From the NCBI RefSeq assembly GCF_002300165.1, contig NZ_MLCE01000031.1, positions 248,001-312,000 of the forward strand: a DNA stretch of 64,000 nt, read 5' to 3'. Positions 41,414 to 45,328 of this stretch are shown piece by piece. The position numbers were made by a program, and so were the translations under genes. The number at the start of each line of letters is the position of its first letter. Within the stretch, counting starts at the first letter, position 1. Under the pieces are notes generated by a model. The model worked only from the letters and a program-made list of their open reading frames with translations, was not told where the DNA came from and did no database searches. The stretch comes from Streptomyces sp. Tue6028. GTDB taxonomy: Bacteria; Actinomycetota; Actinomycetes; Streptomycetales; Streptomycetaceae.

Positions 41414-44400
41414 GTGGATGACATGCCTGCCGCAACCGGGCGCCCGGCTCGGCGGCCGGAGTCCGCCGCCGGCGCCGCACCGCCCGCCCTCCGGCTGCCC
41501 GTCGCCCGCGGCGACCGGGACGACACCGGCGCCCCCCGAGCCGCGCACTCCTGGTCCTCGGACGCCCGCACACCCTCGGACGCCGGCACGGACGCCGCCG
41601 CACTGCCCCTGGCCGCATTCGCGGCCCTGCTGCACCGCTACAGCGGGCAGGGCGATCTCGCCCTCGGCCTGGCGGGAGCACCCGGCCGTGTCGTCGTGAC
41701 GCTGCGGTCGAGGGCCGGGGCGGACACCGGCCTCGCGGACCTGGCAGCGTCGCTCGCGAAGCAGTGCCACGCGGCGCCCCCGACGGCCCGGACGGCGCAC
41801 GGCACCGCCGAACCCGGCGACGAGGGGCAGCCCACGCCCGCCACGACCGCCGTGGGGCGACCGGCTCCGCACCGCGTCGACAGCCTCGGCGGCGGGCTGC
41901 GCGTCGGCCTCCTCGACGGCACGGCGGACGGCACGGGTGACAGCCCACAACACCGTCTGCCCGAGGCCGGGTTCGACCTGCTGCTCGAACTCGGCGCGGA
42001 CGGCTGCCGCACCCTGCACTACGACACGGCGCTCTTCACGCCCGAGGTCGTGGCGCGCATCGCCGCCAACCACGAGGCCCTGCTGCTGGACGGCGTCCGC
42101 CGCCCCCGTACCCCGGTCCACGCACTGCGCCTGTCCGAGCGGGAGACCCGCTTCCTGCTGGACGAGGTCAACGCCACCGCCCGCCCCTACCCGGACGACA
42201 GCCCCCTGCACACCCACGTCGAGGCGCAGGCGGCCCGCACCCCCGACGCGCCCGCCGTGGAATGGCGCGGCACCGTCCTCACGTACCGCGAACTCGACAC
42301 CACGGCCAACCGCATCGCCCGCGCCCTGCTCGCCCACGGCCTCACCCCCGGTGCGCGCGTCGGCGTCTCGACCGCTCGCTCCCACCACACCGTGTGTCTG
42401 CTGCTGGCCCTGCACAAGGCGGGCTGCGCGTACGTGCCGCTCGACCCCGCCTATCCCGCGGACCGGCTCGCCGCCATCGCCGCCACCGCCGGGATGGCCG
42501 CCGTGGTCCACGACGACCCCGAGGTCGGGGAGCGGATCGGCACGGTCGTCGCCACCGCCCTGCCGTGGGACGAGCTGTGGGAGAAGTCCCGGGGCGAGCG
42601 CCCCGACCCCCCTGACGTCGCCGTGGGCGCCGCGGCCGCGACCCACTTGATCCACACCTCCGGATCGACCGGCCGGCCCAAGGGCGTGGTCATCAGCCAC
42701 CGCAACGTGATGGCCCTGCTGGCCTGGGCGTGGGACACGTACACACGGCAGGACGTCGACCGCGTCCTCTTCGCGACCTCGCTCAACTTCGACCTGTCGG
42801 TGTTCGAACTGTGGTGCCCGCTCACCATGGGCGGCTGTGTCGTGGTCGCCGACAACGTGCTCGCGCTGACCGAGGACGACACCCTGCGGCCCACCCTCGT
42901 CAACACCGTGCCCAGCGCCCTCAACGTGCTCCTCCAGCGGGCCGCCGTCCCGCCGTGCACCGCCGTCCTCAACGTCGCGGGCGAACCGCTCTCCAGGGAA
43001 CTCGTCGACGCCGCCTTCGAGAACACCTCCGTCCGACGGCTGTTCAACCTGTACGGACCCTCCGAGGACACCACGTACTCGACGTGGAAGTCCTTCACCG
43101 GCCCGGTCCGCGAACAGCCCACCATCGGTGTTCCCCTTCCCAACACCGTCGCGTACGTGCTCGACCCGGAGGGCCGCCTCGTTCCCCGCGGCGCCATCGG
43201 CGAACTCCACCTGGGCGGAGCCGGGTTGTCCTCCGGGTACCTCGACGACCCGGAACGCACCGCGGCGGCCTTCGTGCCCACCCCCGCGCACCTGGCCGGA
43301 GCGCCCGTGCGCACCCTCTACCGCACGGGCGACCTGGTCCGCTGGACCGAGACCGGCGAACTGCGCTTCATGGGTCGCGCGGACACCCAGGTCAAGGTGC
43401 GCGGCTTCCGCATCGAACTCGGCGAGATCGAAGCCGTACTGCGCCAGGCCGTCGGCCTGCGCGACGTGGCCGCCCTCGCGGTCCGCCGCGGCGACGACAC
43501 CCTCCTCGTCTGCTACGCCGGCCTGGAGGGCGATCCCGTCACCGTCGACGACATGTCCGCCCTGCTGCGCCGGAAGCTGCCGCACTACATGCAGCCCGCG
43601 AAGATCGTGGTCGAGGACCGGCTGCCCCGGCTGCCCAACGGCAAGGTCGACCGCAAGGCCCTCGCCGCCCGCACCGTCGACTGGGGTCCCGCGCGCGACA
43701 CCGCGCACACGGGCGACGGCGGCACGGCCCGCGACCCCGAGCAGGCCGCCGTCGCCCGGGTGTGGGGCGACCTGCTCGGCCTCTCCACGCTCTCCCCGGA
43801 CCTCGACTTCTTCACCGTCGGCGGGCACTCCCTGCTCGCCACGCTCCTCGCCGCCCGCCTGAGCGACGAGAGCACGGCCGTGATCCGTGTCGCCGACATC
43901 CACGAGAACCGCACCCTCGGGGCCCAGGCCGAACTGCTGCGCCGGGCCCGGGTACGCACCCCCGACGCGCATACCGCCACCGGCACCGCCGAGCGCCTGC
44001 GCGCCGTCGCCCACACCCTGCACGAATCCGCCCGGGGCCACGGCATCCCCGCCGCCGCGGCGGCCGTCTACGCGGACGGGGCACTTCAGTTCACCTACCA
44101 CGGCACGGACGACACCGAAAGCGGCCCGGCTCGCTCGGCCGCCTCCCGGCAGCGCGTCACCTGTGTCACCAAGGCACTCCTCGCCTTCGTCGCACTCCGC
44201 CTCGTCGACCGGGGACTCGTCGGCCTCGACGAACCGCTCGACGGTCGACTGCCCCGCGCGTGCGCCCGCCGTGACGGCCGCACCATTCCACTGACACTCC
44301 GTCACCTGCTGTCCCACACCAGCGGGATCGACGACTCCTACGAGGTCTGGCACGACACCCGGCTGCCGGACCTCGACACCTACCTGGCCGGCTTCCGCGC

Positions 44401-45328
44401 CTACGGGCAGCTCTTCGAACCCGGCAGCGTCTTCGCGTACTCCGCCTGCGGCACCTCCATCGTCGCCGGTCTCATCGAGAACCTGCTCGGCATCCCCTGG
44501 CGACGCGCCCTCAACGACCTCCTGCTCACCCCCCTCGGCATCACCCCGGTCCCGGAGAGCGGGACGGCCGAATCCCACTACGGCACCGTGGCCACCGGAT
44601 ACCTGTGGAACGAGACGGACCGGCGCTACGTACGACACGAACCGGGGCCGCAGACCATCGCCGACGACGCCGCCGGATCCTTCTCGGTCTGCCTCACCCT
44701 CCCCGAACTCGCACGCATCGCCCTGCTCGCGCTGCGCGACGGCGTCACCGAGAGCGGCGAGCGCCTGCTGTCCGCCGAACTCGCCACCCAGATGCGCACC
44801 CCGCAGATCGACGTGCCCGGCCACCACTTCATGCACGCCTGGGGACTCGGCTGGCTGATGTTCGGGCCCAGCGCCTTCGGCTTCAACTCCAACGGCAGCG
44901 GCCACCACAACTTCATCCAGATCTTCCCCGAGGACCGGTCCTTCCTCCTGCTCCTCACCAACGCCTACCCCGCCTTCGGGCTCTACGAGGACCTCCTGCG
45001 CGCCTTCACCGGCGAGGGACTCGTCCGCACCGGACGCACCTTCGGCACGCCCCTCGACGACTGCGTGGGCGTCTACGCCTCCGACGGCTACCGGCTCGAC
45101 GTCCTGCCCGGCCCGGAACACCTCCGCTACGCCTACTCCGAGCGCCGGCGAGACGGCGACTGGCAACTCCTCGACGAGGGAGACCTCGTGTCCTCCGGCG
45201 CCGGCGGCTTCACCTCCATGTCCGAGCGGAACATCCTCGCCGGCTCCATCTCCTTCGTCCCCAGGCCCGGAACGGACACCCCGGGCTACGTACGCATAGG
45301 CCAGCGATTCACAAGGAAGGTCCGATGA
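41414..45328 (+). CDS. NRPS: C-domain remnant - adenylation (Ala-like) - T - PBP/beta-lactamase-like domain with Cys nucleophile position
   Basis: 1304 residues, GTG start. Residues ~60-250 resemble the C-terminal lobe of a condensation domain and lack HHxxxDG. The A domain (~265-770) has HTSGSTGRPKG, LYGPSEDTTYST, YRTGDLVRW and LPNGKVDRKAL. Hand-read specificity residues give DLFSNALTYK, one change from a known Ala code (DLFNNALTYK). The T domain is DFFTVGGHSLL, with Ser806 as phosphopantetheine site. Residues ~860-1304 are a serine-hydrolase domain of the class C beta-lactamase/PBP type. Its SxxK motif reads C-V-T-K with Cys917 and Lys920, YxN reads YSA (1009-1011), and the third motif region is GSGHHNF. 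It probably releases, cyclises or transfers the T-bound product. The stop overlaps the next start (ATGA). Confidence 0.88.
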   Translation: MDDMPAATGRPARRPESAAGAAPPALRLPVARGDRDDTGAPRAAHSWSSDARTPSDAGTDAAALPLAAFAALLHRYSGQGDLALGLAGAPGRVVVTLRSRAGADTGLADLAASLAKQCHAAPPTARTAHGTAEPGDEGQPTPATTAVGRPAPHRVDSLGGGLRVGLLDGTADGTGDSPQHRLPEAGFDLLLELGADGCRTLHYDTALFTPEVVARIAANHEALLLDGVRRPRTPVHALRLSERETRFLLDEVNATARPYPDDSPLHTHVEAQAARTPDAPAVEWRGTVLTYRELDTTANRIARALLAHGLTPGARVGVSTARSHHTVCLLLALHKAGCAYVPLDPAYPADRLAAIAATAGMAAVVHDDPEVGERIGTVVATALPWDELWEKSRGERPDPPDVAVGAAAATHLIHTSGSTGRPKGVVISHRNVMALLAWAWDTYTRQDVDRVLFATSLNFDLSVFELWCPLTMGGCVVVADNVLALTEDDTLRPTLVNTVPSALNVLLQRAAVPPCTAVLNVAGEPLSRELVDAAFENTSVRRLFNLYGPSEDTTYSTWKSFTGPVREQPTIGVPLPNTVAYVLDPEGRLVPRGAIGELHLGGAGLSSGYLDDPERTAAAFVPTPAHLAGAPVRTLYRTGDLVRWTETGELRFMGRADTQVKVRGFRIELGEIEAVLRQAVGLRDVAALAVRRGDDTLLVCYAGLEGDPVTVDDMSALLRRKLPHYMQPAKIVVEDRLPRLPNGKVDRKALAARTVDWGPARDTAHTGDGGTARDPEQAAVARVWGDLLGLSTLSPDLDFFTVGGHSLLATLLAARLSDESTAVIRVADIHENRTLGAQAELLRRARVRTPDAHTATGTAERLRAVAHTLHESARGHGIPAAAAAVYADGALQFTYHGTDDTESGPARSAASRQRVTCVTKALLAFVALRLVDRGLVGLDEPLDGRLPRACARRDGRTIPLTLRHLLSHTSGIDDSYEVWHDTRLPDLDTYLAGFRAYGQLFEPGSVFAYSACGTSIVAGLIENLLGIPWRRALNDLLLTPLGITPVPESGTAESHYGTVATGYLWNETDRRYVRHEPGPQTIADDAAGSFSVCLTLPELARIALLALRDGVTESGERLLSAELATQMRTPQIDVPGHHFMHAWGLGWLMFGPSAFGFNSNGSGHHNFIQIFPEDRSFLLLLTNAYPAFGLYEDLLRAFTGEGLVRTGRTFGTPLDDCVGVYASDGYRLDVLPGPEHLRYAYSERRRDGDWQLLDEGDLVSSGAGGFTSMSERNILAGSISFVPRPGTDTPGYVRIGQRFTRKVR

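What the first reader, a model, noticed from the sequence alone, without database searches (positions are those of the whole stretch)
43990..45328. PBP-like NRPS release domain with Cys in place of the catalytic Ser
The C-terminal domain of the NRPS is of the class C beta-lactamase/PBP type. Its SxxK motif reads C-V-T-K (Cys917, Lys920), YxN reads YSA (1009-1011) and the final motif region is GSGHHNF. PBP-type thioesterases are known to release or cyclise NRP chains with Ser. A Cys nucleophile fused directly behind a T domain is unusual and suggests an acyl-thioester intermediate, and thus different chemistry (aminolysis, ring formation or trans-acylation).
Basis: partly seen in the sequence, partly recalled or inferred. 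Interest (0 to 1): 0.85.

Follow-up and report, generated by a model that had tools for sequence, protein, structure and literature searches.

The report
Penicillin-target-fold release domain using cysteine
A small antibiotic-type assembly enzyme found in 14 Streptomyces-group genomes ends in a domain of the penicillin-target fold whose attacking serine has become an invariant cysteine, which points to release chemistry that I have not found described for that fold.

Summary
In the PBP domain the SxxK serine is Cys917 (TGT, 44162-44164); Lys920 and Tyr1009 remain. Cys917 and Lys920 are invariant in 14 of 14 genomes; so are Ala for the YxN Asn and F-N-S for the HxG third motif. In 58 of 58 other S12 loci compared, Ser stands there: 13 of the own genome, 13 further NRPS-fused, 32 nearest relatives. 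Two more S12 frames, beside NRPS genes, have Gly. The Cys clade is one branch (100/100) with a long stem. The domain is as conserved as the A core, which argues against decay. It sits in a nine-gene cassette present in 12 of 12 related loci, with one carrier domain and no intact condensation domain. Likeliest reading: a small amino acid (Ala by a recalled code) passes from T to Cys917 as a thioester, then to an amine. Catalysis, acceptor and product are untested. PBP domains fused to NRPSs are not new in themselves: Ser-type fusions exist, one in this genome.

The parts
41414..45328 (+). NRPS gene, 1304 aa: remnant C - A - T - PBP(Cys) - all-beta tail
41501..42178 (+). remnant of a condensation domain (aa 30-255), poorly conserved, no HHxxxD motif; the Pfam match is under the cut-off
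42197..43678 (+). adenylation domain; ten specificity residues D L F N N A L T Y K, invariant in 13 rows except F/Y at the third
43748..43948 (+). thiolation domain, GGHSL, Ser806 invariant in 13 of 13
43982..44998 (+). PBP/S12 domain with Cys at the nucleophile position
44162..44173 (+). C917-V-T-K920, in place of SxxK
44438..44446 (+). Y1009-S-A1011, in place of YxN
44882..44908 (+). F1157-N-S-N-G-S-G-H-H1165: third motif HxG replaced by FNS, then the clade's GSGHH
45011..45325 (+). C-terminal all-beta tail, perhaps the lipocalin-like domain of PBP-type thioesterases
39696..41117 (+). MFS exporter, conserved cassette member (start codon not settled)
45325..46647 (+). ATP-grasp amide ligase, conserved cassette member
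46644..47573 (+). TIM-barrel protein weakly like peptidase U32, function unknown, conserved cassette member
47588..49372 (+). asparagine-synthetase-like amidotransferase; Cys2 of the glutaminase kept in 13 of 13
49391..50221 (+). putative Fe(II)/2OG oxygenase; HVD...H kept in 13 of 13; Pfam match only at E 0.085
50231..51136 (+). class IV aminotransferase, branched-chain type
51133..52083 (+). AEC-family membrane transporter
52118..53092 (+). TauD-type 2OG dioxygenase

Best explanation
The domain is a PBP-fold aminoacyl-thioester transferase that uses Cys917, with Lys920 and probably Tyr1009 as bases. The A domain loads a small amino acid, probably alanine, onto Ser806-phosphopantetheine. Transthioesterification moves it to Cys917. 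An amine of a small acceptor made by the cassette (aminotransferase, two putative 2OG oxygenases, ATP-grasp, AsnB-like) then takes the aminoacyl group, giving an Ala-X type dipeptide or amide that the two transporters export. Shown by sequence: the Cys/Lys/Tyr set, loss of the Asn and His motifs, one carrier domain, no intact C domain, cassette conservation. Inferred: the thioester, the substrate, aminolysis, the acceptor and the product.
For: Cys917, Lys920, Tyr1009 invariant in 14 of 14. The Cys aligns with the Ser of SurE, IS11 and Ulm16 and begins a helix of the model (domain residues 62-77). The domain is as conserved as the A core: 48% against 49% invariant ungapped columns in 13 rows. 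No HHxxxD motif and one carrier domain among the nine cassette proteins, so the chain is most simply a bare aminoacyl group. The nine genes are in 12 of 12 loci; no flanking ORF family is in more than 3 of 13. The ATP-grasp protein's PDB matches include L-amino acid ligases BL00235 and BacD. Precedent in another fold: the Cys release domains of ObiF and SulM work through a thioester (passages of PMC6668435 and PMC11298585).
Against: No activity data. Two other cysteines of the domain, C1093 and C1217, are invariant too, so invariance alone does not mark the nucleophile. The Asn and the third motif that other S12 enzymes carry are gone. The Ala assignment rests on a recalled ten-letter code, and a paper search for it found nothing. 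Model confidence is moderate (mean pLDDT 68.4) and under 50 at 296-309, where the third motif lies. No acceptor is known; the ATP-grasp enzyme could make the amide bond alone.
Confidence: 0.45

Rival explanations
1. Plain hydrolytic release: the T-bound amino acid is modified on the carrier by the oxygenases and Cys917 then hydrolyses the thioester to give a free modified amino acid.
For: Carrier-bound tailoring followed by hydrolytic release is known (barbamide, as told in PMC8748450, passages). Two putative oxygenases and an aminotransferase are in the cassette. Serine is not universal in release domains: Cys is called less common, and the uncharacterised AB3403 TE has it (PMC11298585, passages).
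Against: An invariant change to Cys with joint loss of the Asn and His motifs is not needed for hydrolysis. In ObiF the reverse change, C1146S, gave mainly hydrolysis (passages).
Confidence: 0.2
2. Inactive or binding domain: the PBP domain has lost catalysis and only holds the carrier or a partner.
For: Three of the four tetrad residues given for PBP-type thioesterases (Ser, His, Asn, Lys; PMC11735501, passages) are replaced. The clade's stem is 1.67 changes per column. Two S12 frames with Gly beside NRPS genes show that S12 domains can lose the nucleophile.
Against: The former active-site positions are fixed, not relaxed: C, K, Y, A, F, N, S in 14 of 14. 48% of the columns are invariant, as in the A core (49%), while the C remnant of the same protein has 16%.
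Confidence: 0.15
3. Strained-ring formation: after a beta-hydroxyl or beta-amine is set on the residue, it attacks the Cys917 thioester within the same residue and forms a beta-lactone or beta-lactam.
For: The TE domains of ObiF (beta-lactone) and SulM (beta-lactam) both use Cys (passages of PMC6668435 and PMC11298585). Two putative oxygenases could set the nucleophile.
Against: Different fold and catalytic residues. No N-acyl group and no intact C domain. No evidence of a beta-hydroxy or beta-amino substrate. The AsnB-like protein keeps its glutaminase Cys, which beta-lactam synthetases lack (recalled).
Confidence: 0.08
4. Aminoacyl shuttle: Cys917 passes the group to another carrier domain or CoA, as CmaE and SyrC do.
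For: CmaE and CysB move aminoacyl groups between carriers, and SyrC is their relative (PMC8748450 and PMC7966384, passages). That such shuttles use Cys is recalled.
Against: No second carrier among the nine cassette proteins, and no shared gene beyond them. The shuttles named are separate proteins, not PBP domains.
Confidence: 0.06

Closest known systems
PBP-type thioesterases (SurE, Ulm16, PenA, WolJ, FlkO)
   Same: PBP fold with a C-terminal beta tail; acts on a T-bound chain; SurE and Ulm16 are among the top sequence and fold matches; Lys kept
   Different: Cys not Ser, Ala not Asn, Phe not His; fused in cis, whereas these are stand-alone (PMC11735501); no peptide chain to cyclise is evident
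Ser-type PBP domains fused to Streptomyces NRPSs (L038/L055, L056-L068)
   Same: S12 domain after A-T (10 scanned) or T-C (1 scanned)
   Different: separate branch; Ser and HxG kept in 14 of 14; second-motif Tyr is Lys in 11 of 14
Ser-type S12 peptidase/esterase-like proteins, stand-alone or fused to S9 peptidases (L035-L037, L069-L097)
   Same: nearest sequence relatives found; group with the Cys clade at 99/99
   Different: Ser in 32 of 32; mostly SYCN and GHDG; the three scanned by Pfam carry an S9 domain, no NRPS parts
Cys release domains ObiF TE and SulM TE
   Same: Cys nucleophile in an NRPS release domain
   [quoted passage not shown] analogy only

Membership tests
S12 / class C beta-lactamase-PBP fold (PF00144) | Pfam PF00144 above its cut-off | tested here: met
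   129.9 bits, cut-off 27; fold rows Z 20.2-23.4 in the list shown
S12 / class C beta-lactamase-PBP fold (PF00144) | nucleophilic Ser of SxxK | tested here: not met
   Cys in 14 of 14
S12 / class C beta-lactamase-PBP fold (PF00144) | Lys of SxxK | tested here: met
   Lys920 in 14 of 14
S12 / class C beta-lactamase-PBP fold (PF00144) | YxN second motif | tested here: not met
   Tyr kept, Asn replaced by Ala in 14 of 14
PBP-type thioesterase | tetrad Ser, His, Asn, Lys (PMC11735501, passages) | tested here: not met
   only Lys kept; Cys, Phe, Ala at the others by sequence alignment
PBP-type thioesterase | C-terminal lipocalin-like domain | tested here: inconclusive
   all-beta tail of about 105 aa; VIA rows mostly span model residues 1-345, SurE 1-420
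PBP-type thioesterase | stand-alone, acts in trans | tested here: not met
   one open frame with A and T
PBP-type thioesterase | head-to-tail macrolactamisation | not testable with these tools
   needs an enzyme assay; unlikely with one carrier and no intact C domain
NRPS aminoacyl loading module | A domain and T domain with its phosphopantetheine Ser | tested here: met
NRPS aminoacyl loading module | substrate alanine | not tested
   ten residues read; the meaning of DLFNNALTYK and the code positions are recalled

The most novel reading that the evidence does not exclude
A penicillin-binding-protein fold that has been rebuilt around a thiolate: with Cys-Lys-Tyr and a new N-S-N-G-S-G-H-H loop in place of the Asn and His motifs, it forms a thioester and uses it to close a strained four-membered ring on the carrier-bound amino acid, so that the fold which beta-lactams inhibit would itself build such a warhead.
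Probability: 0.07. Interest if true: 0.92.

Novelty: new variant of a known kind. Interest (0 to 1): 0.62.

Why it matters
If Cys917 is the nucleophile, this would be a natural thiol-dependent enzyme of the PBP/class C beta-lactamase fold; I know of none, and my paper searches listed none (open PMC text only, judged by titles and the starts of abstracts). It would test whether nature makes the same Ser-to-Cys switch in a second release-domain fold, beside ObiF and SulM. The nine-gene cassette is compact, bounded and held by several species, so its product can be sought directly.

Tried and rejected
Lone mutation or sequencing error: rejected, 14 of 14 genomes. Another Ser as nucleophile: rejected, the alignments with SurE, IS11 and Ulm16 have no gap between Cys and Lys. 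PBP fusion to an NRPS as the novelty: rejected, Ser-type fusions exist. Descent from those fusions: not supported; the Cys clade groups with Ser-type peptidase-like proteins (99/99), but the tool warns of long branches, the split of Cys clade and relatives from each other has 89/71 on the relatives' side, and those relatives were picked by likeness to the Cys profile. The two FAD halogenase-like genes next door as part of the pathway: rejected, found in the window and L009 only, 2 of 13. A named product: alanyl dipeptides and others were considered from recall; nothing supports any one. TIM-barrel neighbour: Foldseek's top row is a U32 peptidase, but many barrels come close and VIA ranks CutC first, so no function is given. 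Paper searches that gave nothing used: (47 listed again a paper already found); two searches gave the five papers of which I saw passages.

Limits: the Ser comparison set was chosen by likeness or by Pfam, not at random. L051 duplicates L055; L053 and L024 are the window itself; they are not counted again. L021 and L022 were left out as the contigs of L009 and L018 (equal contig lengths). A second S12 frame in L096 also has Ser and is not counted. In the tree, L051, L053, rows under 200 aa and repeats were dropped, leaving 75 rows. Alignment A3 has 13 rows, without L023. The flank comparison saw only what the loci hold (up to about 5.7 kb upstream and 2 kb downstream of the cassette) and only ORFs of 90 codons or more with a GC-position filter.
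Full report
WHAT IS THERE. The window lies in a 7.96 Mb genome (G000). Its genus sample includes genomes with contigs of the same lengths as contigs of Streptomyces albiflavescens and Streptomyces sp. ISL-10, so I take it as Streptomyces. ORF 41414-45328(+) is 1304 aa. Pfam: AMP-binding 270-610, AMP-binding_C 671-744, PP-binding 779-842, Beta-lactamase 871-1186; the Condensation match is under the cut-off. There is no HHxxxD motif, and aa 30-255 are poorly conserved (16% invariant ungapped columns, against 49% in the A core and 48% in the PBP part, 13 rows).

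THE CYSTEINE. Codons 916-920 are ACC TGT GTC ACC AAG, T-C-V-T-K. phmmer against PDB sequences puts this Cys on the Ser of SurE (6ksu), IS11 (7spn) and Ulm16 (8fek), with no gap up to the Lys. One scan of the genome collection gave 12 related loci, of 12 species or strains named Streptomyces, Wenjunlia and Streptantibioticus. The genome search found the domain at E <= 1e-40 in 4 of 295 genomes of the genus, the own genome included; two of the others are contigs already found, one (L023) was new. In the 14 rows C917, K920, Y1009, S1010, A1011, F1157, N1158, S1159, H1164 and H1165 are invariant. C1093 and C1217 are invariant as well (13 rows).

CONTROLS. (a) PF00144 finds 14 S12 domains in the own genome; the 13 others all have Ser. 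(b) NRPS fusions: a search with the own genome's second A-T-PBP domain gave 14 loci in 11 of 199 genomes of the genus, itself included; 14 of 14 have Ser, of which 13 are new. Eleven of these 14 were scanned by Pfam, counting the own one: ten are A-T then PBP, one T-C-PBP. (c) Nearest relatives: 3 from a phylum sample (4 of 396 genomes with a match at E <= 1e-33, own included) and the 29 loci returned from a class sample (47 of 345 genomes at E <= 1e-24, not every match was given a locus); 32 of 32 have Ser. Total 58 of 58. Against rarity: two further S12 frames next to NRPS genes (in L058 and L059) have Gly at that position. All controls were picked by likeness or by Pfam.

WHAT ELSE CHANGED. 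Against 29 Ser-type sister rows the Cys clade shows fixed changes at the active site as a set: G-S to T-C (29 of 29 each), N to A in YxN (28 of 29), H-D-G to F-N-S (29 of 29 each), Q to H at 1164 (29 of 29). A maximum-likelihood tree of 75 rows puts the 14 Cys rows on one branch (100/100) with a stem of 1.67 changes per column; they group with the Ser-type relatives (99/99; those relatives by themselves 89/71) and apart from the Ser-type NRPS fusions (14 rows, 100/99). Three of the relatives were scanned and carry an S9 peptidase domain. Two separate recruitments to NRPSs are the simplest reading, under the tool's long-branch warning.

STRUCTURE. AlphaFold2 from 13 rows: mean pLDDT 68.4, pTM 0.74; a helix spans 62-77 of the domain, Cys being residue 62; confidence is under 50 at 114-126, 281-290, 296-309, 330-332 and 343-352. 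Foldseek's best rows include IS11, SurE and Ulm16 (E 6.0e-17 to 1.7e-14), with large rmsd over the full length (about 11 A), so the two lobes are not placed well. VIA-align gives EstG Z 23.4 (rmsd 3.5, 315 aligned) and SurE Z 21.1 (4.3, 318). The fold assignment is firm; the active-site geometry is not.

THE CASSETTE. Nine genes, MFS, NRPS, ATP-grasp, U32-like barrel, AsnB-like, putative 2OG oxygenase, class IV aminotransferase, AEC transporter, TauD, lie in the same order in 12 of 12 loci at 55-91% identity (best segments); of 15 other window genes tested, five match L009 and none another locus. Among flanking ORFs of 13 loci no family is in more than 3. AsnB keeps its glutaminase Cys and the oxygenase its HxD...H in 13 of 13. 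So the pathway seems complete with a single carrier domain, unless genes elsewhere take part. The ATP-grasp protein's best PDB row is annotated phosphoribosylglycinamide synthetase (4dim), followed by L-amino acid ligases (BL00235, BacD); AsnB's best row is a hydroxyamidotransferase (7ylz), then asparagine synthetase B.

SUBSTRATE. Mapped through the alignment to LgrA and recalled code positions, the ten A-domain residues read D L F N N A L T Y K, with F or Y at the third. I recall this as an alanine code; no call confirms it.

MECHANISM. A bare aminoacyl-T, a Cys-Lys-Tyr set and a domain under strong constraint fit transfer through a Cys thioester. Aminolysis by a small amine is my first choice (0.45); hydrolysis 0.20, no catalysis 0.15, strained ring 0.08, shuttle 0.06. 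Published precedent concerns another fold: the ObiF TE needs its Cys for beta-lactone formation, C1146S mainly hydrolyses, and SulM TE also uses Cys (passages of PMC6668435 and PMC11298585). [quoted passage not shown] This domain fails those features, so I do not file it as a PBP-type TE; it is a new variant in the S12 fold.

NOVELTY. Ten paper searches listed no paper that its title or the start of its abstract shows to be about a Cys-type S12 release domain. They cover open PMC text only, and I saw passages of five papers.

Noticed in passing
window 36146-39685: Two adjacent FAD-dependent halogenase-like genes (weak CmlS-type matches) next to the cassette, shared only with S. albiflavescens (L009) among the 12 loci; not part of the conserved cassette.
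   Followed up: partly
window 26386-29148 (-): SIR2-like domain plus STAND NTPase domain in one protein, an architecture that suggests an anti-phage defence gene.
   Followed up: no
L038:3567-8339 (-): Second A-T-PBP NRPS in the same genome, with Ser (S-I-S-K).
   Followed up: partly
L055-L068: In Ser-type NRPS-fused PBP domains the second-motif Tyr is Lys in 11 of 14, Ser in 1, Tyr in 2: another uncommon active site.
   Followed up: no
L058, L059: An S12 frame beside the NRPS gene has Gly in place of the nucleophilic Ser (G-G-V-T-K).
   Followed up: no
L069, L071, L076: S9 peptidase domain fused to a Ser-type S12 domain; among the nearest relatives found of the Cys domain.
   Followed up: partly
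window 46644-47573: The U32-like barrel has relatives (33-42% identical) in other genomes: 31 of 296 genomes of a phylum sample match, own included, three of them of 1.0-1.4 Mb; function unknown.
   Followed up: partly
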